DNA from: Oleiharenicola lentus
Lineage (GTDB): Bacteria > Verrucomicrobiota > Verrucomicrobiia > Opitutales > Opitutaceae
Assembly: GCF_004118375.1 (NCBI RefSeq)
Contig: NZ_SDHX01000002.1
Coordinates: 248,001 to 312,000, forward strand
Reading direction: 5' to 3'
Length of the DNA: 64,000 nucleotides
The notes beneath the pieces were generated by a model. The model was not told the origin of the DNA. It made no database searches and was given only the letters and a program-made list of their open reading frames with translations. The first letter of the stretch is position 1; each line of letters starts with the position of its first letter. The translations under genes and the position numbers were made by a program. Below, piece after piece: positions 4,543-64,000 of this stretch.

Positions 4543-4603
4543 GGGAACTTCCATCCTTGGGGCGCGGCGTTGTGCCAGCCATGGCACGCCGTGGGTTGAC
4601 TGA

Positions 4604-39089: not shown

Positions 39090-39192
39090 CTGGCGTGCCG
39101 CGAATCAGAACCAAGGCCGGACCGCTCAGGAGCCGCTACTCAAGAGCCGAATGCGACACGGACGTCGCAAATCAAAAATCAAGGAAGATACC

Positions 39193-40005: not shown

Positions 40006-40218
40006 GGAGTTCCACGCTAGTCCGCGCGGGGCCGGAGTGATTGCCGGTCCCGCCGCGTAAGAAAAGTGCGGTTGTCTGTATGTTCCTTTCCCCTTTGCGG
40101 CGCGTTTTGTCGCGCGCCGTCACCCTTTGAGGCATTCGCCTCGAACGGCCCGACCTGGCGCCGCTAAAGCCGGGTCCGTGGCGACGACGGAAGGTCGCAC
40201 AAATCAAGGATAGATACC

Positions 40219-49480: not shown

Positions 49481-50770
49481 ATGAGCACCGCCCTCGCCTC
49501 CCCGCTCGCCGTCCACGGCGGCCCGAAGACCATCACGCGGCCCTTTGCGCGTTACAATCCCCTCGGTGCCGAGGAAGTCGCTGCCGCCAAGGCCGTCGTC
49601 GAGAGCGGCATCCTCTCGCAGTACTACGGCCGCTGGTGCGCCGATTTCTACGGCGGCCCCAAGGTGCGCGATTTCGAGCAGGCCTGCGCCGCGAAGTTCG
49701 GCGTGAAGCGTGCCGTCACCGTCAACTCCTGGACCTCGGGCCTCGTCGCCGCCGTCGGCGCAATCGGCATCGAGCCGGGTGACGAGGTCATCACGAGCCC
49801 GTGGACGATGTGCGCGACAGCCACCGCCATCCTGCATTGGAACGCCATCCCGGTCTTCGCCGACATCGAGCCCGACACCTTCTGCCTCGATCCGCGCTCG
49901 GTCGAGGCGAACATCACGCCGCACACGCGTGCCATTCTTTCCGTGGATATCGCCGGCCAGTCGGCCGACATGGACGCGCTACGGGCCATCGCGAAGAAGC
50001 ACAACCTGAAGCTCATCTCCGACTGCGCGCAGGCGCCCGGTGCGCTCTACAAGGGGAAATTCGCCGGCACCCTCGCCGACGTCGGCGGCTACAGCCTCAA
50101 TTACCACAAGCACATCCACACCGGCGAAGGCGGCATCCTCGTGACCAACGACGACGAGATTGCCGAACGGATGTGCCTCATCCGCAACCACGCCGAAGCC
50201 GTCGTGGGCGACAAGGGCGTGACCGACCTTAGCAACATGATCGGCCACAATTTCCGTCTCGGCGAAATCGAGTGCGCCATTGGCATCGAGCAGCTCAAGA
50301 AGCTCGACCGGCAGATCGCCAGCCGTCAGCGCGCCACCGCCCGGCTCACTGCAGGTCTGTCCACCTTGCCCGGCCTGCAGACTCCCGTCACTCGAGCCGG
50401 CTGCACGCACGTCTATTACATGTATCAGATGATCCTCGATCTGCCGCAGCTGGGCGTTAGCCGGCAGAAGCTCTTCGAGGCCCTGAAGGCCGAGGGTATC
50501 GAGGGACTCGGCACCGCCTTCGCCAACATCCACCGCCTGCCGGTCTTCCAGCGCAAGGTGGCCTACGGCCGCGGCGGCTTCCCGTGGACCTCCGACATCT
50601 GCAAGCGCGACGTAAGCTACGCCAAGGGCATCTGCCCGGTGGCCGAGCGCCTACAGGACGAGACCTACCTCGGCTTCCAGGCCTGCATGCACACGCTTAC
50701 CGACGGCGAGGTGGACCTCATGATCGCCGCCTTCCACAAGGTGTGGGACAACCTCGACGCGCTGCGCTGA
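49481..50770 (+). CDS. DegT/DnrJ/EryC1-family sugar aminotransferase
   Basis: A 429-residue PLP enzyme: VNSWTSGLVAAVGAIGIEPG, PVFADIEPDTFCLDPRSVEA, ISDCAQAPGALYKGKFAGTL and YSLNYHKHIHTGEGGILVTN, in which the Lys of HKHIHTGEGG is the Schiff-base residue. It transfers an amino group onto a keto sugar, probably the 3-keto product of the preceding dehydrogenase (WbpE-like). Fits the amidinated-sugar scheme of this operon. Confidence 0.88.
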   Translation: MSTALASPLAVHGGPKTITRPFARYNPLGAEEVAAAKAVVESGILSQYYGRWCADFYGGPKVRDFEQACAAKFGVKRAVTVNSWTSGLVAAVGAIGIEPGDEVITSPWTMCATATAILHWNAIPVFADIEPDTFCLDPRSVEANITPHTRAILSVDIAGQSADMDALRAIAKKHNLKLISDCAQAPGALYKGKFAGTLADVGGYSLNYHKHIHTGEGGILVTNDDEIAERMCLIRNHAEAVVGDKGVTDLSNMIGHNFRLGEIECAIGIEQLKKLDRQIASRQRATARLTAGLSTLPGLQTPVTRAGCTHVYYMYQMILDLPQLGVSRQKLFEALKAEGIEGLGTAFANIHRLPVFQRKVAYGRGGFPWTSDICKRDVSYAKGICPVAERLQDETYLGFQACMHTLTDGEVDLMIAAFHKVWDNLDALR

Positions 50771-50775
50771 TCGCG

Positions 50776-51309
50776 ATGCCCGCCGCCCTCGACACGCTCT
50801 GCGGACACCAGGTTGAGCTCCGTCCCTTCACGAAGGCGGACATCACCCCGGCTTATCTCAGCTGGCTGAGTGATCCCGAGGTCGTGCGTTTCAGCAACCA
50901 GCGCTTCCGCACGCACACGGCGGAAAGCTGCGCGGCCTATCTGGCGTCGTTCCACGGCACTCCCAATCTCTTTTTCTCCATCCTCCGGCAAGGTGACGGG
51001 CGGCCCGTCGGCACCATGACCGCATATGTCTCCGCCCCGCACGGCACGGCGGACCTAGGCATCCTTATCGGCGACCGCGGCTGCTGGGGCCAGGGTATCG
51101 GGCTCGATGCCTGGCAGACATTGATGACCCATCTTTTTCAACATTCCCGCCTGCGCAAGATCACCGCCGGCACGCTCCGGCCGAACATCGGCATGGTGCG
51201 GATCATGGAACGCGCCGGTATGCGCCTTGAGGGCGTGCGCGAGCGTCAGGAAATCGTCGACGGCGTCCCGGTGGACGCGTTGCTCTATGCCCGCTTCCGC
51301 CCTGTGTAA
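50776..51309 (+). CDS. GNAT-family acetyltransferase (RimJ/RimL or PseH-like)
   Basis: A 177-residue GNAT: VELRPFTKADITPAYLSWLS, FFSILRQGDGRPVGTMTAYV, the acetyl-CoA loop DRGCWGQGIGLDAWQTLMTH and LRKITAGTLRPNIGMVRIME. It would acylate the amine made by the aminotransferase. It may act as PseH for the other operon, as no other PseH candidate is seen. The start is the ATG at 50776, five bases after the aminotransferase stop. Confidence 0.8.
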   Translation: MPAALDTLCGHQVELRPFTKADITPAYLSWLSDPEVVRFSNQRFRTHTAESCAAYLASFHGTPNLFFSILRQGDGRPVGTMTAYVSAPHGTADLGILIGDRGCWGQGIGLDAWQTLMTHLFQHSRLRKITAGTLRPNIGMVRIMERAGMRLEGVRERQEIVDGVPVDALLYARFRPV

Positions 51310-52225
51310 CCTGCGAGTGCCGCTCGCCGTCGTCGCGCATGATGCCGGCGCCGCCAACCTGATCCTCGGCTGGATCCGGGAGCTGCCGCCCACGCACTTG
51401 CGGTTGTGCGCGAGCGGACCGGCCAAGAGACTGTTCAGCTCCGCCTTTCCCGACCTCGCCTTGTTGCCGATCGCCACCGTGCTCAACGGCGCGGCGATGC
51501 TGCTCAGCGGCACGAGCGGGCCGCGAAGCGACCTCGAACATGAGGCCAGGAAACTGGCCCGTGCGCGCGGCCTGCCCTCGGTCGGCGTCATCGACCATTG
51601 GGTGAACTACGCCCCGCGCTTCACCCGCGCCGGTGAAACCGTCTTGCCCGACGAGCTGTGGGTCGCCGATGCGCATGCCGCCGCGCTCGCCCGCAGGACC
51701 TTTCCCGGCTACCCGGTGTTCGAACAGCCCAACCGCTACCTGGAAAACCTGGCCGAGACGGCGCGAGCCGCCAGCCAGCCGCACCCGGGCCGCACCCATG
51801 TGGTCTATGCCCTCGAACCGCTGCACTCCGACTGGGGACAAGGTGGTGTCGCGGGTGAATTCCAGGCCCTGGATTACTTTCTCGAACACGCCCCGCTTCT
51901 CGGCCTGCCCGCCGACAGCTTGATCCGCCTTCGTCCCCACCCCTCCGAACCGCGGGAAAAATACTCCGGCTGGCTCGCAGCCCGGAACGATCCCCGTTTC
52001 TCGCTCGATGAGGGCGGCACTCTGGCCGAAGCCATCGGCTGGGCCGACTGGGTCGTCGGTGGCGAAAGCTACGCCCTGGTTGCCGGGCTCGCCGCCGGTC
52101 GTCACGTGGTCTCGACCTTGCCGCCTTGGGCCCCGGCCTGCCGTTTGCCTCATCCCGAGATCAGACACCTGCGGGAAATCTCCGCGGAAGCTGCGCTTGC
52201 CGCGCCAACCCTCGTCGCCGGATGA
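51287..52225 (+). CDS. Uncharacterised protein of the amidinated-sugar operon
   Basis: A protein of about 312 residues with no recognised family. It begins MPASALCNLRVPLAVVAHDA, and contains LPSVGVIDHWVNYAPRFTRA, RPHPSEPREKYSGWLAARN and ADWVVGGESYALVAGLAAGR, which look like a GT-B or epimerase-like nucleotide-sugar fold. It overlaps the GNAT gene by 23 bases (an internal GTG at 51317 would remove the overlap) and the next gene by four. Confidence 0.7.
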   Translation: MPASALCNLRVPLAVVAHDAGAANLILGWIRELPPTHLRLCASGPAKRLFSSAFPDLALLPIATVLNGAAMLLSGTSGPRSDLEHEARKLARARGLPSVGVIDHWVNYAPRFTRAGETVLPDELWVADAHAAALARRTFPGYPVFEQPNRYLENLAETARAASQPHPGRTHVVYALEPLHSDWGQGGVAGEFQALDYFLEHAPLLGLPADSLIRLRPHPSEPREKYSGWLAARNDPRFSLDEGGTLAEAIGWADWVVGGESYALVAGLAAGRHVVSTLPPWAPACRLPHPEIRHLREISAEAALAAPTLVAG

Positions 52226-53352
52226 AATACTGCACGCACTGCCTGCAACCGAACACCCGGCCGAACAGCTATTTCACGCCGGAGGGGCTCTGCCCGGCCT
52301 GCAACTATCACCGCGAGCTGCAGCAGGTGGACTGGCAGGAGCGCTATGAAATCCTCGAGGAGGTCCTGAAAAATTACCCGCGCCGCAAGGGCCAGGGCTT
52401 CGACTGCATCATCGGCGTGAGCGGCGGCAAGGACAGCACGCGCCAGGCGCTCTGGGCGCGTGACAAGCTCGGTCTGCGACCGCTGCTCGTCTCCCTCTGC
52501 TACCCGCCCGAGCAGCTGACCGAGCGCGGCGCCGAGAACATTTCCAACCTGATCGAGCTCGGCTTCGACATGGTGACCACCAGCCTCGCTCCGCAGACCT
52601 GGCGCCGGATGCTGCGCGAAGGTTTCTTCCGTTTCACCAACTGGGCCCGCGCCAGCGAGCAGGCGTTGATCAGCTCGGTGCCCCAGCTCGCGCTGCGCTA
52701 CCGCATCCCGCTGATCCTCTGGGGCGAAAATCCCGGCCTGCAGCTTGGCGACATGAAAACGCTCGGCCGCACCGGCTACGACGGCAACAACCTGCGTTAT
52801 ATGAACACGGTCGCCGGCGGCGGGCTCGACTGGATGCTCGCGGCCGGCTTCAAGCGCGAGGAGCTGCACCGCTACCTTTATCCGCACGCCGAGCAGTTCG
52901 ACGCCGCCGGGATCCAGATCGTCTATCTCGGCTGGTTCTGGAAGGACTGGTCGCTGATCAACAACGCCCTCTACTCCTGCCCCAACGGCCTGGAGATCCG
53001 CAGCGACTCGGTGGAGAACACCGGCGACCTGCGCGGTGTCGCCTCGCTTGACGAGGACTGGGTGACGCTCAACCAGATGATCAAGTACTACAAATTCGGC
53101 TTCGGCCGCGTGACCGACTACGCCAACGAGGAGATCCGCCTCGGCCGCATGTCCCGCCAGCGCGGCATCGAATTGGTGGAGCAATACGACGACGCCTGCA
53201 GCCCGGCCTACATCGAGAGCTTCTGCCGCTACATCGAGATCAGCGTCGCGGATTTCTGGAAGCAGGTGCATGCCTCGGTGAACCGAGAACTTTTCACGAT
53301 CGAACCCGACGGCCGCATCCGCCGCCGTTTCCAAGTGGGGGTGGGCCTGTGA
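52222..53352 (+). CDS. N-acetyl-sugar amidotransferase (WbpG/PseA-like)
   Basis: A 376-residue PP-loop ATPase with an N-terminal zinc-type cluster (YCTHC, CPAC), the intact ATP motif GVSGGKDSTRQAL, and LRYRIPLILWGENPGLQLGD and ADYANEEIRLGR-like C-terminal region. WbpG/PseA enzymes turn an acetamido group into acetamidino using ammonia supplied by HisH/HisF-type partners, encoded next. The ATG at 52222 overlaps the upstream stop. Confidence 0.85.
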   Translation: MKYCTHCLQPNTRPNSYFTPEGLCPACNYHRELQQVDWQERYEILEEVLKNYPRRKGQGFDCIIGVSGGKDSTRQALWARDKLGLRPLLVSLCYPPEQLTERGAENISNLIELGFDMVTTSLAPQTWRRMLREGFFRFTNWARASEQALISSVPQLALRYRIPLILWGENPGLQLGDMKTLGRTGYDGNNLRYMNTVAGGGLDWMLAAGFKREELHRYLYPHAEQFDAAGIQIVYLGWFWKDWSLINNALYSCPNGLEIRSDSVENTGDLRGVASLDEDWVTLNQMIKYYKFGFGRVTDYANEEIRLGRMSRQRGIELVEQYDDACSPAYIESFCRYIEISVADFWKQVHASVNRELFTIEPDGRIRRRFQVGVGL

Positions 53353-53960
53353 GCCGTCGCGGCATCGGCATCGTGGACTACGGCGTGGGCAACCACACCT
53401 CCGTGTGGCGCACGCTCTACACGCTCGGCTACCGCTGCAAGGTCACCAGCCGGCCGGAGGAACTCGACGCCATGGATCTGCTCGTCCTGCCCGGTGTGGG
53501 CGCCTTCCCCGCCGCCATGCAGGCCATCCATGCCCGCGGCCTCGCCACCTACCTTCGCGCCGCTGCCGCCGCGGACCGTCCGCTGCTCGGCATCTGCCTC
53601 GGCATGCAGATGCTCGCCGACTCCTCCACCGAATACGGCGAGACCGCCGGCCTCGGCCTCATTCCCGGCCGCGTGGACGCCATCGGGGCCGGTCTCTGGC
53701 ACATCGGCTGGAACGCCATCGAGGCCGACCCGGCCGACCCGTTGCTCGGGCGCAGCGCGAACGAATCGTTTTACTTCAACCATTCCTACGCGGTGGACTG
53801 CACGCCCGAGTTCGCCGTCGCACACGCTTCACTCAGCCGCCGTTTTCCGGTCGTCACCCGCCGCGGGCGCGTGGTCGGAGTCCAGTTCCACCCGGAGAAG
53901 AGCCAGCACGCCGGCCGGCAGCTGCTGACCGACATCATCGGAGGCCTGCTCCATGCTTAA
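53349..53960 (+). CDS. hisH: HisH2-type glutaminase subunit
   Basis: A 203-residue HisH: IGIVDYGVGNHTSVWRTLYT, LLVLPGVGAFPAAMQAIHAR, catalytic Cys in PLLGICLGMQML, and catalytic His/Glu in VQFHPEKS. It frees ammonia from glutamine. Start is GTG at 53349 in a GTGA overlap. Paired with an altered HisF and a WbpG-like gene rather than with histidine genes, so it serves sugar amidation (HisH2), not histidine synthesis. Confidence 0.86.
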   Translation: MSRRGIGIVDYGVGNHTSVWRTLYTLGYRCKVTSRPEELDAMDLLVLPGVGAFPAAMQAIHARGLATYLRAAAAADRPLLGICLGMQMLADSSTEYGETAGLGLIPGRVDAIGAGLWHIGWNAIEADPADPLLGRSANESFYFNHSYAVDCTPEFAVAHASLSRRFPVVTRRGRVVGVQFHPEKSQHAGRQLLTDIIGGLLHA

Positions 53961-54741
53961 CCAACGACTTATCGGCGTCGTCACCGTGAAGGACGGCTGG
54001 GCCGTCCAGTCCTTCCGCTACGGCCGCTGGCTGCCGATGGGCAAGCCGGAGTGCGTCGTCGAAAACCTTGATCGCTGGGGTGCCGACGAGATTCTCATCC
54101 TCTGCATCGACCGGAGCCGTCGCCAACTCGGTCCCGACTTCGCCACATTGGAACGCCTCAAGCGCCTCAACCTCGCCACGCCACTGATCTACGGTGGCGG
54201 AATCCGCTCGGCGGAGGACGGCGTCGCCGTCGTCCACCTTGGCGCCGACCGCGTCTGTGTGGATGCGCTGCTGCGCGACGACCTCTCCGCCGTTCACAAG
54301 CTTTCCCGGCAACTGGGCGCCCAGGCGGTCGTGGCCGCCCTGCCGCTCAGCGTGGCCAACGGCGCGCTGGCCTGGCGTGACTACCGCCGCGCCACGGACA
54401 CACCGCTCGACCCCGCCGTGCTCGCCGCCCTGAACGACGGCACCATTTCCGAGGCCCTCCTCATCGACTGGCCGCACGAGGGTTCGCCCCGGGCCTTCGA
54501 CCCGGAGATTGTCCGGCTATTCCCGGCCCGCAACCGCCAGTTGATCGCCTTCGGCGGGTTGAGTGAATCCGACCAGCTTGCCAGCCTCTTCGGGTTGCCG
54601 ACGGTTACCGCAGCTGGCGTCGGCAATTTTCTGAGCTATCGCGAGCACGCCATCCAAGCCCTCAAGGCCGGCCTGACCGGCCTGCCCATGCGCCCCGCCG
54701 CCTACCCGACATCCGAGCGCAGCTGTCCCGAACCCGCCTGA
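53953..54741 (+). CDS. hisF: HisF2-type subunit without cyclase aspartates
   Basis: A 262-residue HisF-like barrel beginning MLNQRLIGVVTVKDGWAVQ. Compared with Thermotoga HisF, Asp11 is Thr (VVTVKDG) and the Asp130 position is Pro (VVAALPLSVANG), so both catalytic acids of the cyclase are lost. The DEILILCIDRSRRQ, LIYGGGIRSAEDGVAVVHLG and IAFGGLSESD parts keep the barrel. It would act as the ammonia tunnel between HisH and WbpG. It overlaps hisH by eight bases. Confidence 0.85.
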   Translation: MLNQRLIGVVTVKDGWAVQSFRYGRWLPMGKPECVVENLDRWGADEILILCIDRSRRQLGPDFATLERLKRLNLATPLIYGGGIRSAEDGVAVVHLGADRVCVDALLRDDLSAVHKLSRQLGAQAVVAALPLSVANGALAWRDYRRATDTPLDPAVLAALNDGTISEALLIDWPHEGSPRAFDPEIVRLFPARNRQLIAFGGLSESDQLASLFGLPTVTAAGVGNFLSYREHAIQALKAGLTGLPMRPAAYPTSERSCPEPA

Positions 54742-54743
54742 CC

Positions 54744-55994
54744 ATGTCCGCCGACCTTCATTTCTGCCGCCGCTGCCTCTACGGCACCAGCCACCCTCTC
54801 GGACTCGTGCTCGACGAGGAGGGCATCTGCTCGGGCTGCCGCATCCACGAGGAAAAGGACCGCCTCGACTGGGACGAACGCTGGCGGAGGCTCGAGCGCA
54901 TCGTCCAACCGCACCGCAGCGTCTCGGGTCGTGAATACGACTGCATCGTGCCGGTCACCGGCGCCCAGGATTCCTACTACATTGTCCATCTCGTCAAGGA
55001 GCGCCTCGGCCTCAATCCGCTCCTCGTCACTTACAACAAGTATTTCAACACGCCGCTCGGCATCAAGAACCTCGCCAACCTGCGCATCCGCTACAACTGC
55101 GACATCCTCTTCCAGAACGTGAACCCGGTTTCGGTGAAGAAGATCACGCGGACGACGCTGCGCGAGTTCGGCAGCATGTATTGGCCCTGCTTGGCCGGGC
55201 AGACCGTGTTCCCCGTGCAGGTCGCCGTGCGCCACCGCATCCCGCTCATCATCTGGGGCGCCCACCAGGGTCTCGAGCAGACGGGCATGTTCTCCCATGA
55301 ACACGAGGTGGAGATGACCCGTCGTTACCGCAAGGACCACGACCTCATGGGCCACGAGGCCGACGACCTGCTGCTGGTCTATGACACCCTGAAGGAGGAG
55401 GACATTTGGCAATACCGCTACCCGGGCGACGATGACCTCAACTCCGTCGGCGTGACCGGCATCTATCTCGGCAACTACGTTCGTTGGGATCCCAAGGCGC
55501 AGCACGAGCTGATGATGAAGCGGCATGACTTCCGCACTGCGCCCTTCGCGCGCACCTTCGACTGCTACGACTACACGGACTGTTTCAACTACATGGACGT
55601 TCACGACGTCCTGAAACTCTACAAGCAGGGCTACTCGCGCGTCACCGACCACGCCTCCCGCGAGATCCGCCACGGCCGCCTCACCCGCGAGCAGGGCCTG
55701 GCCCTTGTGCGCGCCCACGAGCAAGTCTCGCCGAAATACCTCGACCTGTTCTGCTCGTGGCTCGGCATCACGCCGCGCTCGCTGCAGTTCATGCTGGACC
55801 AGCACCGCAACCCGCGGTTCTGGACCGAACTCACGCCGGGGCGCTGGGCCTTCAACGGCTGGAGTGTTCATTCCGGCTCCCATGAATCGGCGCCGGTGGA
55901 AGTGAATCTCTCCAAGGCGCGATTCACGCCGACCGACACGCTCGAATACGATCGCGACGCGGCCTACATCACCCTCGGCAAGGGTCACCCTTGA
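54744..55994 (+). CDS. Second amidotransferase-like protein with altered PP-loop
   Basis: A 416-residue paralogue of the WbpG-like protein: zinc-type cluster (FCRRC, CSGC), LNPLLVTYNKYFNTPLGIKN, MYWPCLAGQTVFPVQVAVRH and a C-terminal VTDHASREIRHGRLTREQGL. The ATP loop is changed to PVTGAQDSYYIVH where SGGKDS is normal. It may bind a different nucleotide, be inactive, or pair with the intact copy. Two bases after hisF and convergent with the IMPase gene, with only 12 bases between. Confidence 0.78.
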   Translation: MSADLHFCRRCLYGTSHPLGLVLDEEGICSGCRIHEEKDRLDWDERWRRLERIVQPHRSVSGREYDCIVPVTGAQDSYYIVHLVKERLGLNPLLVTYNKYFNTPLGIKNLANLRIRYNCDILFQNVNPVSVKKITRTTLREFGSMYWPCLAGQTVFPVQVAVRHRIPLIIWGAHQGLEQTGMFSHEHEVEMTRRYRKDHDLMGHEADDLLLVYDTLKEEDIWQYRYPGDDDLNSVGVTGIYLGNYVRWDPKAQHELMMKRHDFRTAPFARTFDCYDYTDCFNYMDVHDVLKLYKQGYSRVTDHASREIRHGRLTREQGLALVRAHEQVSPKYLDLFCSWLGITPRSLQFMLDQHRNPRFWTELTPGRWAFNGWSVHSGSHESAPVEVNLSKARFTPTDTLEYDRDAAYITLGKGHP

Positions 55995-56006: not shown

Positions 56007-56792
56007 TCAGGGACAGGCCCTGAGCACGTCGGCCGCCCGCGCACACAATCCGGCGTCCCGGGCCACGATCACGCCAGGCTTCTCCATGGGACCGTCGAAA
56101 CCGAAGGGTTGGCCATCCGGCAACGCGAGTAAACCGCCCGTCTCCGCCAGCAGCACCGCCGCGGGAGCCATGTCCCAGTCGCGCACGGTCACGCGCTTCA
56201 CAAAGAGGTCCGCGGTGCCGTCGGCGACCAGCGCAGCCTTCAGCCCGAGACTGCCGCTCTCGCGGTAACCGGTCGCCGGCAAGGCACGAACCAGCTCGGC
56301 CGCGATGCCGTGCGGCTTGGGCGTGTTGTCCACGACAATGCAGCGGTCGCGCGGCAGCAGGCCCGGCAAGCGCCGGCCGTTGCGCCAGGCCCCCTCGCCG
56401 GCTCGGGCCGTCCAGGTCTGATTCGTTGCCGGACAGTGAATGATGCCGGCTTGCGGCACCTGGTCGGCGATGAACGCGGTCTGCGTCACGAAACCCGGAA
56501 AGCCATCATACCAGCTGGCCGTGCCGTCGATCGGGTCGATCAGCCAATAGGCGGCGGGGCGCGTGCTGCCGTGTTCGGTATCCTCCTCCGACCAGATGGG
56601 CACGCCCGGGAAAAGCACCGCCAGCCGCTCCTTGATGAAGGCATCCGCCCGGCGGTCGGCCTCCGTCTTGAAATCCTGGCGCGAATGCAAGGCGCGGGCC
56701 GTGTCATCCGTGCGCCAGCGGAGCAGCTCGCGACCGAGCGCTTCCAGCACGGGGACGACGGCGGCCGTGACGTTGGGCATGGTCGTGATCAT
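56007..56792 (-). CDS. Inositol-monophosphatase-family phosphatase
   Basis: A 261-residue IMPase-family enzyme: FKTEADRRADAFIKERL, SEEDTEHGS, the metal motif YWLIDPIDGTASWYDGFP and VRDWDMAPAAVLLAETGG. It removes phosphate from a sugar or inositol phosphate; histidinol-phosphate and PAP phosphatases are other members. Last gene of the minus-strand sugar operon, overlapping the epimerase by four bases. A TCAGGG/CCCTGA hairpin lies at its end (56007-56023). Confidence 0.82.
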   Translation of the reverse strand: MITTMPNVTAAVVPVLEALGRELLRWRTDDTARALHSRQDFKTEADRRADAFIKERLAVLFPGVPIWSEEDTEHGSTRPAAYWLIDPIDGTASWYDGFPGFVTQTAFIADQVPQAGIIHCPATNQTWTARAGEGAWRNGRRLPGLLPRDRCIVVDNTPKPHGIAAELVRALPATGYRESGSLGLKAALVADGTADLFVKRVTVRDWDMAPAAVLLAETGGLLALPDGQPFGFDGPMEKPGVIVARDAGLCARAADVLRACP

Positions 56793-57745
56793 GTGGCCGC
56801 CAGCGCGTCCAACAAGGCCAGTTCTCTGGCGCGCAATCCGTCAGTCTCCGGACGCGGTGGCCGCCCGGCGCAGACGGCCGCCAGCCATTCTCGCAAGTCA
56901 TGCGGTCGGTGACCGGACAGGGCAAAGAGGTTTGCCCGGCCGGGCGTGACCGCGTGCTCACGCCAAAGCGGTTCCTGATCGAGGTAAGTCGGCAGTTCAG
57001 CTTGCAGCCAGTCAGCTTCAGCAGAGCGGCTGCGCAAAGTCACATCCTCGGCATCGGCCAGCGCAGCCAGCACGGCATCCACCGTCTGGCCGGAATCCGG
57101 CAGTCCATCGAGAATGGGCGCGCTCCAAAGCCGAACACGTAACAAGGCCCCGGCGATCGCATCGGCCACATCCTCGCACCAGACAAGATTGGCCGCATTG
57201 GTCCCGCCGTTCACGAGCAGCACCGGGCCGCCATCAACGAGACGGCGCCGGTAGAAATCGAGCCGGCCGGTGTGGTCGTCCGCCCCGCCCATGATGGGCA
57301 AACGGAGCACAGCCGCGGCCCGTCCACGGTCCCGCGCCGTGAGCACGGCGCATTCCGCCCGCGCCTTGCCGGAGAGGTAGCGTTGCGTGACCTGCGGCAG
57401 GCTCGAGGGCGCCTCACCGCACACGGGCGCATCCACCGCTAGCCCGGTGTTGAATTTGGTCAGCCAGGTGCTGCTTATCAGCACATAGGCGGCATCCGGA
57501 CAGGCACCCAGCGCCGCGCTCACGGCCGGTTCGTCGTAAGCAGTAAAATCTAGGATCAAGTCGAAGCCGCTCGCTGCGGGCAACCCGGCCAGCACCTGCT
57601 GCCGTTCACCCGCCAGCACCCGGACTCCCGGGGGCGCAGCCTCCGGTCGGCGCGAACTGACCGTGACGGCATGTCCGTCCCGCAACAGTCTTGCCGCGAC
57701 CGCGCGACCGGCAAAGCGGGTGCCTCCGAGGAGCAGGATTTTCAT
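56789..57745 (-). CDS. NAD(P)-dependent sugar epimerase/reductase-like protein
   Basis: A 318-residue short-chain-type Rossmann protein: ILLLGGTRFAGRAVAARLLR, LILDFTAYDEPAVSAAL, YVLISSTWLTKF and RYLSGKARAE. The classical YxxxK appears as Y..GKA. It belongs to the extended NAD epimerase/NmrA group; product unknown. It starts one base after the preceding stop. The ATG at 57745 was chosen over one at 57808 inside the upstream gene. Confidence 0.75.
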   Translation of the reverse strand: MKILLLGGTRFAGRAVAARLLRDGHAVTVSSRRPEAAPPGVRVLAGERQQVLAGLPAASGFDLILDFTAYDEPAVSAALGACPDAAYVLISSTWLTKFNTGLAVDAPVCGEAPSSLPQVTQRYLSGKARAECAVLTARDRGRAAAVLRLPIMGGADDHTGRLDFYRRRLVDGGPVLLVNGGTNAANLVWCEDVADAIAGALLRVRLWSAPILDGLPDSGQTVDAVLAALADAEDVTLRSRSAEADWLQAELPTYLDQEPLWREHAVTPGRANLFALSGHRPHDLREWLAAVCAGRPPRPETDGLRARELALLDALAAT

Positions 57746-57746
57746 T

Positions 57747-59792
57747 TCAGGCGGCCGCGGCGGCGGCCAGACGATCCCACTGCAGGATCTCCTCGGCCGC
57801 AACGGCACGGGTCAGCACGCGACCAAGCACATGGTCGAGTTCGCCCGGCGGAATGCCCGAGGCGGGACGCGCGAGATAGACGTCATCGGCCGTGAGGCGA
57901 TGACCCGCCGGCAGATCGCGGCGGATGATGATGCTCTTGAGGTATTCGCTCCGGTTGCGCAGCTCGCGCGCGGTGGGTGGCACAAACTCCGCCGGCACCT
58001 TGGGTCGGCCGAGCGGGGTGGCCCGCAACGTGGCGATGTATTCCGCAAACTCCTCCGGTTGCATCGCAAAGGGATGATCAGGACCGCTCTGGCGACGATC
58101 GAGCGTGATATGCTTCTCGAACAACACGGCACCGGCCGCGCGAGCAGCGAGGGCCGCCTCCACGCCCATGGCGTGATCCGAGAAGCCGAAGATCGCCCCA
58201 TGCCGCTTGGCGAGGAACGGCAGGTTGCCGAGACGCAGCTCCTCCGGCTTGGGCGGGTAAACCGCGCAACAGTGGAAGAAGGCCGCACCCGGCCCGTGCG
58301 ACGCGAGGGTTTTCACCGTCGCGTCGATGTCCGGGAGCTGTGCCATGCCGAACGACACGAGGATCGGGGCCGGCAAACGGTTCACCAGGCTGCGCAGGAA
58401 AGGCAGGTTATTGTGATCCATCGAGGCGATTTTCACCACGTCGAGCCCGACCTGTTCCGCCCACCGGAGGCCGTGCGGGCCGTGGATCGTGGCGGAGAAA
58501 TCCATGCCCAGTTCGTGACAATAGTCCCGGAGTTCGGGAAACCACTCTTTCGGCGTCTGCAGATGCCGGCCAAACATCTCGCGCGCGGAGATGTCACCAT
58601 AGAGCTTGTCGAGGCCGTAGGCGCTGGCGCGCACGCCGGCACTCACGATCTCTTCCGGTTCGTAGATCTGGAACTTGGCGCAATCGCAGCCGGCGGCCGC
58701 GATCTCGCGCAGCATGGTGCGGGCGGTGGCGAGGTCCCGGTTGTGGTTGGTGCCGACCTCGGCCATGATGTAGGGCCGCAGGGCGGGGCCGATCTTGGGC
58801 TGGCCGCGAACAGAAAGCGCGGTGGATTCGTGGGTGCTCAGGGTGGGCATGGGGGCGGATGGTTGAAACTCGTTGTGCCAGTGACGGATCAGACGCAGGC
58901 CGGGGGCAAACGCCGCCATGGCCGTCGTGACGGTCTCGTCGGCGTAGAGCGCGAACGGGTCAACGCCTGCCGCGATGGCCAGACAAAAGGTCGTAGAAAC
59001 CCGCGGGTTGACCTCAAAAGGCAGCACCTCACCGGCGGCTGTGACCATGCACTGGATGTTATAGGGACCCGTCGGACGGAAAGCGGCCTGGAAACGCGCC
59101 GCATAGGCGGTGATCGCCGGATTGGCCTCGGTCGCCGCGCGGATCGTGATGCCGCGTTTGGAATCCACGCGGACCGGCACGACTGCCCGCAGTTGCGCGT
59201 GCCGGTCGGCGAGCACGAAGACTGTGTATTCTTGCCCGGCGATGCATTCCTGCGCCACGACCTGGGTCGGCTCGGTGCCCTGGAGGATCAAGTAGGCCGG
59301 GATCTGCGCGGGTTGTTCAAGGCGCATGACGCCGCGCGAGCCACGACCGGACCGAGGCTTGAGAATCAGCGGAAACCGCCAATCCGCCGCCTCGTCGGCG
59401 AGGCCCGTGCGCGGAACGGCAAGACCGTGCGCTTGGAGCGCCCGGGCGAAGGCCAGCTTGTCCAGCATCGTGGCCACAAATTCACCGGACCCAAGCAGCA
59501 CTTCCGGCAGCGTGCCCTGTTGCCTCGCCGCGGCCAGCAGGGGCAGTTCCTCATCCACACAGGGCACGATGAGGTCGATGCGGCGCTCGCGACAGATCCG
59601 GGCCAAGCAGGAGACGAAATCTGGACTGCCGGCCGAGGGAATCACCACACACCGGTCGGCAGGAATCGCCGGGTCGATCACGCCGGCCTGGGCATCGGCA
59701 AAATGCAACTCGTAGCGAGTGTGTAACAATCGCCAGAGCGCCTCGTTGCCCGCGCCGCCGCCGCCGGTGATGAGAATGCGCCGGGGCTTCAT
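57747..59792 (-). CDS. ATP-grasp - NeuB (sialic/pseudaminic acid synthase) fusion
   Basis: A 681-residue fusion. Residues 1-325 are an ATP-grasp ligase (PLILKPRSGRGSRGV at 141-155, FEVNPRVSTTF at 259-269). From about 339 comes a NeuB-type synthase (YIMAEVGTNHNRDLATARTM, CAKFQIYEPEE, FEKHITLDRRQSGPDHPFA) with a C-terminal SAF domain (about 615-675). NeuB/PseI condense a six-carbon sugar with PEP. The fused ligase could add an acyl or amino-acid group to the product. NeuB and ATP-grasp proteins are usually separate. Confidence 0.88.
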   Translation of the reverse strand: MKPRRILITGGGGAGNEALWRLLHTRYELHFADAQAGVIDPAIPADRCVVIPSAGSPDFVSCLARICRERRIDLIVPCVDEELPLLAAARQQGTLPEVLLGSGEFVATMLDKLAFARALQAHGLAVPRTGLADEAADWRFPLILKPRSGRGSRGVMRLEQPAQIPAYLILQGTEPTQVVAQECIAGQEYTVFVLADRHAQLRAVVPVRVDSKRGITIRAATEANPAITAYAARFQAAFRPTGPYNIQCMVTAAGEVLPFEVNPRVSTTFCLAIAAGVDPFALYADETVTTAMAAFAPGLRLIRHWHNEFQPSAPMPTLSTHESTALSVRGQPKIGPALRPYIMAEVGTNHNRDLATARTMLREIAAAGCDCAKFQIYEPEEIVSAGVRASAYGLDKLYGDISAREMFGRHLQTPKEWFPELRDYCHELGMDFSATIHGPHGLRWAEQVGLDVVKIASMDHNNLPFLRSLVNRLPAPILVSFGMAQLPDIDATVKTLASHGPGAAFFHCCAVYPPKPEELRLGNLPFLAKRHGAIFGFSDHAMGVEAALAARAAGAVLFEKHITLDRRQSGPDHPFAMQPEEFAEYIATLRATPLGRPKVPAEFVPPTARELRNRSEYLKSIIIRRDLPAGHRLTADDVYLARPASGIPPGELDHVLGRVLTRAVAAEEILQWDRLAAAAAA

Positions 59793-61765
59793 GACGCGGT
59801 GATGGCCAGCCGGTAGCGGCGGCCCTGATGTTCGAAAAACGCGGGGTAACGCTCATTGTCCGCCACGCGCAGCTGATTGAACTGTTCAGCCAGCGTCCGG
59901 GCCGGCTCCAACCGGCTGTCTTCGGGCCGACGGCGCGCGTAAAAGCTTTCCTCACCCGACTGCGCCCGGGCCTGCGCCACGCATTGGGGATATTCCTGCA
60001 CGAAGCGGCGGCACAAAGTGAGTGTCGCGGCCGCCTGCCGGGCGCGCAGCTCGCTCACAAGTTCGTCTCCTTTCAGGTGGATGATTTCCTCGGCGTAGAT
60101 CAGGCCGCTGTCCACGCGCTCGGCCGCCTCGATCAGGGTCACGGGGATTTCCGTGCGGCCTTCCAGGACCTGCCAGGTAAGCGGCGACCAGCCTTTGCCG
60201 TGCGGCAGAGCGCTCTCATGCACCACGAGGTTGTGGCGGTAACGGGCGCGAATCGCGGCCGGCACCAGCTGTCCGCAACCCAGGTAAAAACAATAGTCCC
60301 CACCCCGGAGTTCACCGGGAGCATGCACCCACTCGACCGTGTGCCCGTCCCGCATCCAACCGAGCACGAGGTCGGCCAGCGATTCGTTCAACCAGCTCGA
60401 GGCGTCCGACAGGATCGCCAGCCGCTGGCCGGCCCGCACCGCGTTTCCGGCTGCTCGCAAAGGAGGCAGAACCCGCGAGTGTCCGTCTGCCATGGGCATG
60501 GCGGCGCGCAGAAGGACCAAAGCGCTGGCTAGAACCCTGGATGTGGCCACCTTCGCAAAACCAGACTCCAACTCTTGGGTGACCAAAGCTAAACTGTCTT
60601 CCTGCGGAGTGAACTCCAGACGCGCCACCGGCAACCCGGTGGCATGAACCAAAAAGCACCGGCCGGATTCGCCCTGAATGGTGTAATTTTCCACGGGTGT
60701 CGGCTGAAGCTGTTCGGCGACGCGCAGCACCCCCAGCCCATCGACCAGATTTCGGCCGGAGACGCTCAATCGCCGGCGCTTTTCCGGCGAACTGAGCAGG
60801 CCCTGCAGCTCATCGCTGAGATTCGCCTCGGTGAAATCAGCCAGCGGACCGAGATAAATCACGCTGCCATCCGCGGCGAGGCTCCGGCAGGCTGTGAGTT
60901 GATTCTCGGAAACGCCAACCAAGAGCGAGGGCACGCCCAGGCAAAGGCGCTCCCAGGTCGCGCCACCGCCAGCACCGATCGCCACATCGGCCTGTAGCAG
61001 CAAATCGGCGAGATGAGGCCGGGTGGAGAGAATCCGGGTGCGTCCGCGGCTGGCCGCCAGAACCTCGAGTGAGGCACGATGCGGGTAGTTCGGTCCGACG
61101 ACTACATCCACGGCCAGTCCCGCAAACGGACTCTCCGAGAGCACACGCAAAGTCCGGCCGGAAAGATTCTCGGCATCCACACCGCCGAAGAAAACGAGAA
61201 CGCGAGTCACTTCTTCGGCTGCATCCGTTGTCTTCAGCGCACGCGCGACAGCATACTCCGGCCGCAGCAGCGCATACCTTGGACCGAGTAGCACCTGACA
61301 GCCGGCGGGTACCGAACCGTGGGTTGCGCCCTGATTCTGGTTGAGGAGAAAGTCGCAGTCGTGCGCGCGGGCGGGCAGGTCGTCGATGGCCAGAATTCGG
61401 CCGCAGTGCGGGCGCAGCGCCCTTTCCCACGACGCATCCAATCCGTAGTGGTCCACCACCAACCAGTCGGGCCGTAGGCCAGCCAGGGCGGCAATGGTCT
61501 CCCGGGCATCCTGGTCAACCGGCACTCCCCGCCACACGGAATAGACATCGTCCGCGGACGCGACGATGTCACTGCCAGGAGCAGGCAGCAGCGTGGCCGG
61601 CATCAATTCCTCCGCGAGCCGCGCGGCCAGATGGCCGTCGTGGCTGCGGGTGATGAAGCGAACTTCCGCCCCACGCCGACGCAACTCGTGCGCCAGAGTA
61701 AGGCACCGCACCACATGGCCGGTGCCGATCAACCGGGAGGAATCGCAGCGGAAAACAATTTTCAT
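59789..61765 (-). CDS. PseG hydrolase - formyltransferase fusion
   Basis: A 658-residue fusion. Residues 1-345 match PseG: the catalytic His17 in IGTGHVVRCLTLA, DWLVVDHYGLDASWERA, VFFGGVDAENLSGRTL, GGGATWERLCLGVPSLLV. Residues about 490-600 are a methionyl-tRNA-formyltransferase-like domain, with N512, H516 (HNLVVHESALPHGKGWSPL) and D552 (RVDSGLIY) at the catalytic positions, and a C-terminal tail. The linker (about 355-425) weakly recalls a worn acetyltransferase. It should add a formyl group where PseH would acetylate, then release UDP. Confidence 0.85.
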   Translation of the reverse strand: MKIVFRCDSSRLIGTGHVVRCLTLAHELRRRGAEVRFITRSHDGHLAARLAEELMPATLLPAPGSDIVASADDVYSVWRGVPVDQDARETIAALAGLRPDWLVVDHYGLDASWERALRPHCGRILAIDDLPARAHDCDFLLNQNQGATHGSVPAGCQVLLGPRYALLRPEYAVARALKTTDAAEEVTRVLVFFGGVDAENLSGRTLRVLSESPFAGLAVDVVVGPNYPHRASLEVLAASRGRTRILSTRPHLADLLLQADVAIGAGGGATWERLCLGVPSLLVGVSENQLTACRSLAADGSVIYLGPLADFTEANLSDELQGLLSSPEKRRRLSVSGRNLVDGLGVLRVAEQLQPTPVENYTIQGESGRCFLVHATGLPVARLEFTPQEDSLALVTQELESGFAKVATSRVLASALVLLRAAMPMADGHSRVLPPLRAAGNAVRAGQRLAILSDASSWLNESLADLVLGWMRDGHTVEWVHAPGELRGGDYCFYLGCGQLVPAAIRARYRHNLVVHESALPHGKGWSPLTWQVLEGRTEIPVTLIEAAERVDSGLIYAEEIIHLKGDELVSELRARQAAATLTLCRRFVQEYPQCVAQARAQSGEESFYARRRPEDSRLEPARTLAEQFNQLRVADNERYPAFFEHQGRRYRLAITAS

Positions 61766-62436
61766 GACACCCTCCGGCCCAGAATGAAGGCCTCCGCGGC
61801 TTCGGCGCCGATGGTCGCGCCACGCCACCGCGCCAGATGCTCCACGCCCTGCCGCGAACGCGGATGCGGCCAGGGTCGCATTTCCACCGAGTAGGCATCG
61901 ATCGCGCGCAACTTGCGTTCAAGTTGAAGTCCGATGTCCACAAACCAATTGGGCGCGAAAACCGGCGCCGAACCGGGCGGCTGCCACTCCGTGCTGGAAG
62001 CAACCTCGAAGAAAAGCAGGGTGCGCACCGGCTGTCCCGCCTGCGGTCGCGTGGCGGCGATCACGGCTTCATGCAGGCGGCGGTGGTCGATGTTCACGTC
62101 ACCGGCGTGATGCGTGTAGAGCGTATCGGGCCGGTGGGCGGCGATCTGGGCCTCGGCCAGTTTCACGATGTCGAGCAACGGAACCGTATCCAGACGGTTG
62201 TCCGGAAGGTCTCCGAAAGAAACCGACGTGACGCCCAGTTCCGCCAGCGCACGTCGTGAGGCCTCCCGGCGCATGGTCAAGGCCGCGTGATCCACCAGGT
62301 CCCGAGAGTTGACCCCATCGGCCAGGAAGGCCACGTGGATGGCCGCGCCCTCGTCGGCATGGCGGGCCAGCGCGCCGCCGCACCCGAGGACCTCGTCGTC
62401 GGGATGGGCGGCCAGCACTAGAATACGGGACTTCAA
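61762..62436 (-). CDS. PIG-L/LmbE-family deacetylase
   Basis: A 224-residue PIG-L domain protein: the zinc motif AAHPDDEVLGCGGALARHAD, DGVNSRDLVDHAALTMRREA, and the second zinc His in TYTHHAGDVNIDHRRLHEA-like sequence (THHAGDVNIDHRRLHEAVI). These enzymes remove N-acetyl groups from sugars. In a pseudaminic operon with a formyltransferase, it may free an amine for re-acylation. Overlaps both neighbours by four bases. Confidence 0.87.
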   Translation of the reverse strand: MKSRILVLAAHPDDEVLGCGGALARHADEGAAIHVAFLADGVNSRDLVDHAALTMRREASRRALAELGVTSVSFGDLPDNRLDTVPLLDIVKLAEAQIAAHRPDTLYTHHAGDVNIDHRRLHEAVIAATRPQAGQPVRTLLFFEVASSTEWQPPGSAPVFAPNWFVDIGLQLERKLRAIDAYSVEMRPWPHPRSRQGVEHLARWRGATIGAEAAEAFILGRRVS

Positions 62437-63131
62437 GCGACTTGACGGGATACGCTGTCGAACATCAGCTCCGCACGAGTCCAGTCATCCAGGTTGTCGA
62501 TGTCCTGCACGCGCCAGCGCGGGATGATGACCGGGTGGGAATGACGTTCAAAGAAGCGCTTGCCCTCCAGCCAGGCGTCGGGACGCCCCCAGTAGAACTG
62601 GCCGGCATCGTGCAGCGCCTTGGGCAGATCCTGCGAACGGGCGGTGAACTTGTCGGGGAAAAACATCTCCACCCCACCCTCGGGATGCGGCTGGAACGAG
62701 CGGAAGATCGGGGCGGCGAATTCGGTGGCCGTAAACGCGTAGGCCCAGGGTCCGGAGGCCAAGGCCTCGCAGCCGCGGCGGAGATCGGAAATGTGAACAA
62801 ACGGCGCCGTGGCATAGATGCAGCAGACCGCATCGTAGGCACCGTGGCGTTCCTGCATCCAGCGGGTCGCATGAGCGATCACCTCGATGGTGCCGGCGTG
62901 GTCGTTGGAAAGCTCCGCCGGCCGCATGAATGGCGTCTCCGCGCCATGCGCACGGGCGATGGCGGCGATTTCCTGATCGTCGGTGGAGACAATCACATCG
63001 GTGAAAAGCCCGCTGGCGCGTGCCGCCACAATCGAGTGGGCGATCATCGGCTTGCCGGCGAACAGGCGGATGTTTTTCCGCGGGATGCGCTTCGATCCGC
63101 CTCGGGCGGGAATGACACAAAGGTTTTTCAT
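62433..63131 (-). CDS. pseF: Pseudaminic acid cytidylyltransferase PseF (NeuA-type)
   Basis: A 232-residue CMP-sugar synthetase: LCVIPARGGSKRIPRKNIRL, KPMIAHSIVAARASGLFTDV, VSTDDQEIAAIARAHGAE and AVCCIYATAPFVHISDLRRG. It activates the nine-carbon sugar with CTP for transfer. The ATG at 63131 overlaps the pseC stop by four bases; a longer frame to 63290 lies in pseC. Length is normal. Confidence 0.9.
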   Translation of the reverse strand: MKNLCVIPARGGSKRIPRKNIRLFAGKPMIAHSIVAARASGLFTDVIVSTDDQEIAAIARAHGAETPFMRPAELSNDHAGTIEVIAHATRWMQERHGAYDAVCCIYATAPFVHISDLRRGCEALASGPWAYAFTATEFAAPIFRSFQPHPEGGVEMFFPDKFTARSQDLPKALHDAGQFYWGRPDAWLEGKRFFERHSHPVIIPRWRVQDIDNLDDWTRAELMFDSVSRQVA

Positions 63132-64000
63132 CGGCTGGGAATCGGTGACAGGGACAGGACAGTATCGATGACAAGGGCCACGTCGGCATCGGTCATCGCG
63201 GGGAAAAGCGGAAGGCTGAGCGCACGTTGGTAATACGCTTCGGCCGCGGGGCACTTGCCCGGACCGTAGCCGAAGGTGCGCCGATACCACGGCTGGAGAT
63301 GCACGGGAATGTAGTGGACCTGCGTGCCAACTCCGGCCTCGCGGAGTGCGGACATGACTTGGGACCGGGAGCGTCCCAACGCGGCAAAATCGATCTGCAC
63401 CGTATAGAGATGCCAGGAAGTCGTGGCGGCATCAGCGGCCGTGCGCAGGCCGGGCGTTCGCAGCCAATCGGTGCCGGCGAAGGCGGCGTTGTAGGCCGCG
63501 ACGATCTCGCGGCGGCGCGTCAGCACGGCTTCGAGGCGATCAAGTTGCGAGAGTCCGAGCGCACACTGGAGGTCGGTGAGCCGGTAGTTGAAGCCCAGCT
63601 CCTGCATCTCATAGAGCCAGGGACCGGGTTCCGTGGTAAATTCGGTGAAGTTGTCGGCGACCCGCTCAATGCCATGTGAACGCAGACGGCGGGCCTGCTC
63701 AGCCCAGTCGGCCCGGTCGGTCACGAGCATGCCGCCCTCGCCCGTCGTCAGTGTCTTGACGGGGTGGAAACTGAAAACCGCGAGATCGGCCCAGGGATTG
63801 CCGCCTACATTCCAGACGCGCCCTTCGGCATGAAAACTCCCACCCACCGCGTGGCAGGCATCCTCAATCACAATGGCGCCGCGTGCGCGCGCGATGCGAG
63901 AGACTTCCGGCAGGTTGGCGGTCTGACCGGCAAAATCCACGGCTACGACCGCGCGGGTGTCGTCGAGCCAGTTTTTTTCCAGCGCGTGCGGATTTATCGT
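63128..64000 (-). CDS. pseC: UDP-4-amino-4,6-dideoxy-N-acetyl-altrosamine aminotransferase PseC (5' end outside)
   Basis: The last 290 residues of a DegT-type PLP enzyme; the reading frame runs off the window edge, so the start is missing. VVAVDFAGQTANLPEVSRIA, VIEDACHAVGGSFHAEGRVW, and FSFHPVKTLTTGEGGMLVTD with the PLP Lys are visible, as is the C-terminal VGTQVHYIPVHLQPWYRRTF. PseC aminates the 4-keto product of PseB, which probably lies just outside. Confidence 0.9.
   Translation of the reverse strand, partial: TINPHALEKNWLDDTRAVVAVDFAGQTANLPEVSRIARARGAIVIEDACHAVGGSFHAEGRVWNVGGNPWADLAVFSFHPVKTLTTGEGGMLVTDRADWAEQARRLRSHGIERVADNFTEFTTEPGPWLYEMQELGFNYRLTDLQCALGLSQLDRLEAVLTRRREIVAAYNAAFAGTDWLRTPGLRTAADAATTSWHLYTVQIDFAALGRSRSQVMSALREAGVGTQVHYIPVHLQPWYRRTFGYGPGKCPAAEAYYQRALSLPLFPAMTDADVALVIDTVLSLSPIPSR

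What the first reader, a model, noticed from the sequence alone, without database searches (positions are those of the whole stretch)
59789..61765. PseG fused to a formyltransferase: possible N-formyl-pseudaminic acid route
The hydrolase domain that follows acylation in the pseudaminic pathway is fused to a formyltransferase-like domain with its N-H-D catalytic residues in place (N512, H516, D552). In the standard route, PseH acetylates the 4-amine made by PseC and PseG then removes UDP. Here the fusion could do both, giving a 7-N-formyl product. No dedicated PseH is seen in this operon, and the linker weakly recalls a worn acetyltransferase. N-formylated pseudaminic acids are known in some Pseudomonas glycans.
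Basis: partly seen in the sequence, partly recalled or inferred. Interest (0 to 1): 0.85.

Follow-up and report, generated by a model that had tools for sequence, protein, structure and literature searches.

The report
Sugar hydrolase fused to a formyltransferase
A bacterial enzyme for making a flagellum-type sugar keeps its hydrolase half, seems to have let an old acetyl-adding part wear down, and carries a formyl-adding half, so the sugar is probably formylated instead of acetylated; this still needs a bench test.

Summary
The fusion is real: one 658-codon ORF at 59789-61765 (-), PseG (residues 1-355) plus a formyltransferase (FT, 448-658). No acetyltransferase lies in the operon, and two PseH profiles found nothing convincing in the genome. 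In 13 of 51 relative clusters the FT is the only acyl-transferring domain I detected. So the FT most likely formylates the PseC product and PseG then removes UDP, giving a 7-N-formyl pseudaminic acid. One detail is wrong: N512 is not the canonical catalytic Asn. That place (His minus 2) holds V514, and none of 72 rows has Asn there; His516 and Asp552 are invariant. The chemistry therefore needs a test. A PIG-L deacetylase and an ATP-grasp domain in the operon may change the N5 group of the end product. Replacement of PseH by a formyltransferase is already known as PseJ (role recalled; PDB names seen); this FT clade is nearer in sequence to 1ZGH and ArnA than to PseJ. New variant of a known kind.

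The parts
59789..61765 (-). fused PseG - eroded GNAT - formyltransferase gene, 658 aa (P0001)
   Evidence: 4-base overlaps with the neighbouring genes
60701..61765 (-). PseG domain, residues 1-355; His17 (codon 61715-61717) aligned with His17 of C. jejuni PseG 3HBM
60500..60685 (-). eroded GNAT (PseH) remnant, residues 361-422: four strands and one helix, no acetyl-CoA loop motif at the expected place
59792..60424 (-). formyltransferase domain, residues 448-658; V514 (60224-60226) at the canonical Asn place, H516 (60218-60220), D552 (60110-60112), N512 (60230-60232)
   Evidence: PF00551 over cut-off; profile of 72 rows against PDB best 1ZGH 2.4e-19; column counts
57747..59792 (-). ATP-grasp domain fused to NeuB/PseI-type synthase (NeuB + SAF)
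   Evidence: PF02655, PF15632, PF03102, PF08666; TIGR03569 and TIGR03586 both below their cut-offs
61762..62436 (-). PIG-L family deacetylase (start codon not certain)
   Evidence: PF02585 8.5e-25
62433..63131 (-). PseF cytidylyltransferase
   Evidence: TIGR03584 308.8 bits, cut-off 205.7
63128..64000 (-). PseC-type aminotransferase, cut by the window end; whole in L002 2129-3313, with a PseB-type dehydratase next to it at about 3336-4433
   Evidence: TIGR03588 is the best NCBIfam match of the cut fragment, below cut-off; PF02719 for the PseB-type protein
56789..57745 (-). NAD-dependent epimerase-like protein
   Evidence: PF01370
56007..56792 (-). inositol monophosphatase/CysQ-like phosphatase
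   Evidence: PF00459 1.4e-40

Best explanation
A bifunctional enzyme of the pseudaminic acid route. [quoted passage not shown] The N-terminal PseG domain then cleaves off UDP, and the PseI-type domain and PseF carry the 4-formamido sugar on to CMP-Pse with formyl at N7. The acetyltransferase PseH that once sat between the two domains has decayed because the FT took over its step. In this operon the N5 acetyl group is probably removed later by the PIG-L protein and replaced by an acyl or aminoacyl group ligated by the ATP-grasp domain. Shown: architecture, both outer domains under strong constraint, a linker that drifts and resembles a GNAT, no recognisable PseH. Inferred: donor, substrate, position of the formyl group, and the later N5 exchange.
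For: Domains. Same fusion elsewhere: 23 fused ORFs among 80 loci, in 7 phyla by record title, several being MAGs. GNAT decay: linkers of L050, L078, L079, L083, L085 score above all of 2000 shuffles each against a PseH profile; a three-row profile own+L049+L050 beats 300 of 300 column shuffles; a linker-only model built from three rows, none of them a PseH, finds acetyl-/acyltransferases at Foldseek ranks 1-14. Acetyl-CoA loop motif present in 8 of 10 PseG-GNAT proteins without FT in the same ORF, in 5 of 10 PseG-GNAT-FT proteins, and in none of the 5 eroded linkers at the right place. Constraint, own against L049: PseG 80% and FT 83% identical, linker 40%; NG86 dN/dS 0.13, 0.11, 0.31. Single-acylator clusters: 13 of 51 loci with both flanks have no PIG-L, PseH-type GNAT, GNAT2-type protein, second FT or ATP-grasp domain detected; PseG was detected in 9 of the 13. 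Seven small unassigned ORFs from 4 of the 13 hold no acetyltransferase or FT domain. Own genome: no PseH over cut-off (best 28.4 bits against 93.1); best match to the fused-PseH profile 15.8 bits, on the other contig.
Against: The canonical Asn is missing in the whole clade (0 of 72). Five PseG-GNAT-FT proteins keep an apparently working GNAT motif next to the FT, so the FT does not always mean loss of acetylation. The own linker alone is weak: 29 of 2000 shuffles score as high, own+L049 5 of 300, and the three-row hhalign probability is only 9.8%. PIG-L in the operon allows the FT to act at the other nitrogen. One of 30 FT genomes has a PseH over cut-off (G390, genome of L059, a PseG-FT fusion without GNAT), and Bacillota genomes with single-acylator clusters have sub-threshold PseH-like GNATs elsewhere (54 to 80 bits). 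TIGR03585 recognises GNATs fused to PseG poorly (37.2 bits in L064's genome), so its silence proves little. A GNAT lies at about 50776-51309 on the other strand. No activity or glycan data.
Confidence: 0.68

Rival explanations
1. The FT formylates the other nitrogen: PIG-L removes the 2-N-acetyl group (N5 of the nonulosonate) and the FT refills it with formyl; the 4-amine is acylated by something else.
For: PIG-L is in the own operon. Of 51 loci with flanks, 32 of 35 with PIG-L have a second acylating domain, 1 of 16 without. In some relatives PseH and FT stand together.
Against: 13 of 51 clusters have the FT without PIG-L and without another acyl transferase detected, where only the 4-amine should be free. 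In the own operon the second acylator is the ATP-grasp domain, and no acetyltransferase is left for the 4-amine.
Confidence: 0.16
2. The FT domain is catalytically weak, dead or scaffolding, and the 4-amine is acetylated by an unlinked acetyltransferase such as the GNAT at about 50776-51309.
For: Canonical Asn absent. A GNAT lies nearby.
Against: FT under strong purifying selection, dN/dS 0.11 own against L049; His and Asp invariant in 72 of 72. The nearby GNAT travels with its own block (DegT, WbpG, HisH, HisF) and also occurs where PseG-PseH keeps its motif, e.g. L058.
Confidence: 0.11
3. The FT uses another donor or adds another small group, the missing Asn marking a change of chemistry.
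For: V, I or A at the canonical Asn position in 72 of 72, and V in 1ZGH; N or T (70 of 72) four before the His instead.
Against: The rest of the loop (H-x-S-x-L/V-P-x-G-x-G, D-x-G) is that of formyltransferases. Nothing found points to another donor.
Confidence: 0.05

Closest known systems
PseJ formyltransferase (PDB 6CI2, 6CI4, 6CI5, 6EDK; Anoxybacillus, organism and role recalled)
   Same: A formyltransferase in place of PseH in a pseudaminic acid pathway (role recalled from a 2018 paper that the library does not hold).
   Different: Stand-alone (recalled); the FT profile here matches it at 35.6 bits against 73.0 for 1ZGH and 65.5 for ArnA, so it is not the nearest relative; no PseG fusion of it known to me.
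PseG-PseH fusion (hydrolase/acetyltransferase; here L042, L043, L044, L041)
   Same: Same PseG domain followed by the acyltransferase of the preceding step.
   Different: There the GNAT has its motif; here it is worn down and a formyltransferase follows.
PDB 1ZGH, deposited as methionyl-tRNA formyltransferase
   Same: Nearest solved relative of the FT domain (2.4e-19); has V, not Asn, two before the His in the printed alignment.
   Different: Not fused; I know of no test of its function (recalled).
ArnA formyltransferase domain
   Same: UDP-4-amino sugar N-formyltransferase, 4.5e-17.
   Different: Asn at the canonical place; acts on UDP-4-amino-4-deoxy-L-arabinose; fused to a dehydrogenase, not to PseG (functions recalled).

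Membership tests
PseG hydrolase (TIGR03590) | NCBIfam equivalog score over cut-off | tested here: met
   274.1 bits against 153.55
PseG hydrolase (TIGR03590) | His17, catalytic in C. jejuni PseG (role recalled) | tested here: met
   GTGH in the own protein, aligned with GFGH of 3HBM; H in 23 of 24 fused rows, own included, 1 gap
Folate-dependent formyltransferase (PF00551) | Pfam gathering score | tested here: met
   32.5 bits against 26.1
Folate-dependent formyltransferase (PF00551) | Asn of the N-x-H motif | tested here: not met
   V514; V 67, I 4, A 1 of 72 rows
Folate-dependent formyltransferase (PF00551) | catalytic His and Asp | tested here: met
   H516 and D552 in 72 of 72
PseJ | closest in sequence to PseJ among solved formyltransferases | tested here: not met
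   1ZGH and ArnA score higher than 6CI2/6CI4 with the FT profile
PseJ | formylates the PseC product | not testable with these tools
   needs an assay
PseH acetyltransferase | acetyl-CoA loop motif R/Q-x-x-G-x-G/A in the middle domain | tested here: not met
   absent after the fourth strand; the only regex match, residues 437-442, lies in the low-confidence tail
PseH acetyltransferase | separate PseH gene in the own genome | tested here: inconclusive
   none over cut-off with TIGR03585 (best 28.4 bits), nothing convincing with the fused-PseH profile (15.8 bits, E 0.026); TIGR03585 is insensitive to fused GNATs

The most novel reading that the evidence does not exclude
A clade of formyltransferases without the classical catalytic Asn, separate from PseJ, has repeatedly displaced the acetyltransferase inside PseG-PseH-FT proteins, leaving fossils of the GNAT in some of them. 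Across phyla a PIG-L deacetylase then allows a second acylator (a second FT, an ATP-grasp ligase or PseH) to rewrite the N5 group, so that gene content predicts the two N-acyl groups of the sugar.
Probability: 0.4. Interest if true: 0.7.

Novelty: new variant of a known kind. Interest (0 to 1): 0.5.

Why it matters
It would give a genetic marker for N-formylated pseudaminic acids in many bacteria, show a step-by-step replacement of one acyl transferase by another within a single protein, and offer a formyltransferase clade in which the accepted role of the catalytic Asn can be tested directly. Nonulosonic acids decorate flagella and cell surfaces, so reading their N-acyl groups from genomes is useful.

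Tried and rejected
Linker against Pfam: no match. Own linker alone against the PseH profile: not convincing (29 of 2000 shuffles as high; L049 72 of 2000); own+L049: 5 of 300. Only with L050 as a third row (score 19.9 against a control maximum of 12.8, hhalign probability 9.8%), and with the structure search, does it stand. VIA search of the full model: the PseG domain filled the 50 rows, so FT and linker were not tested by it. The linker-only model has pLDDT 55.3; of 1073 Foldseek matches none reaches E 0.001 and the best is 0.018: the agreement of the top rows is the evidence, not the E-value. The full-length model was built with PseG-GNAT-FT rows in its alignment, which may favour a GNAT-like linker.

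Acetyl-CoA motif counts: six of the ten PseG-GNAT proteins without FT in the ORF were fetched through an FT gene that lies beside them, so they are no FT-free control; L065 and L077 lack the motif.

PIG-L against second acylator: tree-aware pairs are only 5 on supported branches (9 on all), 3.5 on average the same way, 0 opposite, 1.5 without difference, median p 0.125: not significant once kinship is counted. The Fisher value of 1e-7 for PIG-L against FT-B/ATP-grasp/second FT (27 of 35 against 0 of 16) ignores kinship. Exceptions: L069, L099, L111 have PIG-L without a second acylator (L099 showed an ATP-grasp match at a laxer threshold); L076 has GNAT and FT without PIG-L.

The 13 single-acylator clusters: no PseG was detected in L103, L109, L110, L124; L083 keeps a GNAT remnant (30.1 bits). 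The Pfam scan of 76 unassigned ORFs from 21 loci (8 of the 13) listed only the 25 commonest of 80 families. A scan of 29 of the small ones listed 22 families, none an acetyltransferase, one Formyl_trans_N match whose ORF the table does not name. I then scanned 10 ORFs one by one, 7 of them from L081, L102, L107, L108: no acetyltransferase, no FT. Unassigned ORFs of L083, L103, L109, L110, L124 were not scanned. The fused-PseH and FT profiles found nothing in the 76.

Rows dropped: L083 and L085 were left out of the PseH profile and then scored with it; L106 has no complete FT motif; 51 of the 80 loci passed the flank and PseC/PseI filter; L080 (unclear border) and L104 are not in the 72-row FT alignment; L055, L086, L124 appear to be the same contigs as G330, G292, G253 (same lengths). 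PseH was sought in 30 of the 80 loci's genomes. Plasmid search for the FT: 1 of 72,556 records. Papers: six library searches; I judged them by listings and opened passages of eight papers; none of what I saw describes this fusion, and most subscription journals are not held.

Full report
What is there. The gene at 59789-61765 (-) is a single frame of 658 codons. It overlaps both neighbours by four bases, which supports the ATG at 61765. PseG covers residues 1-294 in the TIGR03590 match, 274.1 bits against a cut-off of 153.55; the model aligns with C. jejuni PseG up to residue 313 and with MurG-like proteins to 355. The C-terminal part matches Formyl_trans_N above Pfam's cut-off. A profile of 72 rows finds 1ZGH (2.4e-19), ArnA (4.5e-17) and, lower, PseJ (6.6e-8) among solved structures. 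The AlphaFold2 model has mean pLDDT 90.8.

Surroundings. Reading along the minus strand the operon is PseB-PseC-PseF-PIG-L-[PseG-GNAT remnant-FT]-[ATP-grasp-PseI]-epimerase-phosphatase. The PseB-type gene lies just outside the window in L002. Flagellin genes lie in the same window (about 39.2-41.0 kb), and a TPR protein with a GT41 domain lies upstream in L002. A flagellin glycosylation island is therefore likely (inference). None of the five other genomes of the genus that were drawn has a match to the fusion protein at 1e-20, which suggests recent gain or repeated loss.

Catalytic residues. In the HMMER alignment to ArnA the Asn stands two before the His; here this is V514. Among 72 rows it is V 67, I 4, A 1; His516 and Asp552 are invariant; N512 is N 61, T 9, C 1, S 1. 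1ZGH has V at the canonical place too. The missing Asn is thus a property of the clade, not damage in this gene.

The linker. Between PseG and FT lie about 90 residues. Two phylum relatives with the same fusion, G330 and G292, have almost nothing there. In the 80 loci of the genome-contig scan (298 relatives confirmed, best 80 kept) 23 ORFs fuse PseG and FT. Ten of them hold a GNAT detectable by a PseH profile between the two; four more (L049, L050, L078, L079), like the own protein, have a shortened or degraded stretch; eight have none (L055, L059, L062, L073, L086, L087, L104, L108); L080 is unclear. Against a PseH profile of 18 rows, L050, L078, L079, L083 and L085 score above all of 2000 shuffles each; own and L049 are reached by 29 and 72 of 2000. 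A profile of own+L049+L050 scores 19.9 against a maximum of 12.8 in 300 column shuffles, with an hhalign probability of only 9.8%; own+L049 alone is reached by 5 of 300. The full model shows strands 361-367, 370-375, 378-388, 391-398 and a helix 409-422. A linker-only model from three rows repeats this order at low confidence (pLDDT 55.3), and Foldseek ranks 1-14 in the PDB are all acetyl- or acyltransferases (best E 0.018, none under 0.001). The order fits a GNAT that lost its first two helices and its C-terminal half (inference).

Constraint. Between own and L049, PseG is 80%, FT 83% and the linker 40% identical, each aligned without gaps; NG86 dN/dS is 0.129, 0.109 and 0.310. Against L050 it is 0.328, 0.244 and 0.851 (dS is near saturation). 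Both outer domains are kept by selection; the linker drifts.

Does the FT replace PseH? Of 51 loci with at least 5 kb on both sides of the FT and with PseC and PseI, 16 have no PIG-L gene, and in 13 of these no PseH-type GNAT, GNAT2-type protein, second FT or ATP-grasp domain was detected. PseG was detected in 9 of the 13; one of these, L083, keeps a GNAT remnant in its linker. Small unassigned ORFs of four of the 13 hold no acetyltransferase; five of the 13 were not scanned this way at all. In the own genome, TIGR03585 finds nothing over cut-off and the fused-PseH profile nothing convincing. Of 30 genomes with the FT, 16 have a TIGR03585 match at 1e-6 and one is over cut-off (G390, genome of L059); Cohnella and Paenibacillus genomes with single-acylator clusters reach 54 to 80 bits, under the cut-off of 93.1, so an unlinked PseH is not excluded there; L081's genome has no match. 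The acetyl-CoA loop motif is kept in 8 of 10 PseG-GNAT proteins without FT in the ORF and 5 of 10 with FT. In the FT tree, decayed GNATs fall in separate places: own+L049+L050 (95/95), L078 beside L076 (85/81), L079 beside L072/L065 (88/83), L083/L085 beside L070 (100/99 for the three). The five eroded rows need 3 changes on the best tree, 2 forced by supported branches. Decay after gain of the FT thus seems to have happened more than once.

PIG-L and the second acylator. 32 of 35 loci with PIG-L carry a second acylating domain, 1 of 16 without. The tree-aware test has too few pairs (5, p 0.125). In the own operon the second acylator would be the ATP-grasp domain on PseI. I read this as removal of the N5 acetyl and its replacement, which is a hypothesis.

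Literature. The six-step PseB-C-H-G-I-F route is in PMC7910423 (passages). Geobacillus islands with Pse genes but no PseH, some with formyltransferases, are in PMC5109656 (passages); the passages I saw do not connect the two. Halorubrum has 5-N-formyl-legionaminic acid with a candidate formyltransferase gene (PMC6137143, passages). Pse with 7-formamido in Pseudoalteromonas distincta is known to me from a reference title. A passage in PMC4875605 says that formyl and amino substitutions were observed on sugars of P. aeruginosa flagellin glycan. PMC13317340 and PMC7371886 have no occurrence of 'formyl' in the text searched. PseJ: PDB names seen, function recalled.

Verdict. The formyl route is the best reading, at 0.68. 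As a kind it is a variant of the known replacement of PseH by a formyltransferase; the fusion, the GNAT fossil and the clade without Asn are what I did not find described in the library searched.

Noticed in passing
window 57747-59792, 56007-57745: ATP-grasp domain fused to PseI, followed by an epimerase-like protein and a CysQ/IMPase-like phosphatase; ATP-grasp with IMPase and/or epimerase genes recurs beside the FT in L055, L060, L061, L078, L086, L116. Possibly a module that adds an acyl or aminoacyl group at N5.
   Followed up: partly
L050, L053, L058 and others: A second formyltransferase type (H-x-T-D-x-P-x-G-R-G-G-S-P motif, like 1ZGH) occurs only in clusters with PIG-L among 51 loci: 23 of 35 with, 0 of 16 without (kinship not counted). 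1ZGH may be a sugar formyltransferase rather than a methionyl-tRNA one.
   Followed up: partly
window 49481-55994 (+): Block DegT aminotransferase - GNAT (about 50776-51309) - surface polysaccharide protein - WbpG - HisH - HisF - WbpG, conserved in L036 and, with other order or gaps, L057, L058, L078, L079, L087; looks like a second amidino-type sugar pathway.
   Followed up: no
L041:8935-11040 (-): A PIG-L protein fused to an FT of the same clade as the window's, beside WbpG/HisH/HisF genes and a PseG-PseH fusion.
   Followed up: no
L002:6428-8551 (-) and 4487-5116 (-): TPR protein with GT41 domain and a further GT41 piece upstream of PseB; candidate glycosyltransferase for flagellin.
   Followed up: no
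window 39151-41031 (+): Two flagellin genes in tandem; two more matches at G000:C2 228-230 kb.
   Followed up: no
L076, L112: PseG-GNAT-FT proteins that keep the GNAT motif: both acyl transferases seem kept; what each does there is unexplained.
   Followed up: no
genome of L059 (G390:C41:45353-45817): A PseH over the TIGR03585 cut-off (116.2 bits) in a genome whose PseG-FT fusion lacks a GNAT; its neighbourhood was not looked at.
   Followed up: no
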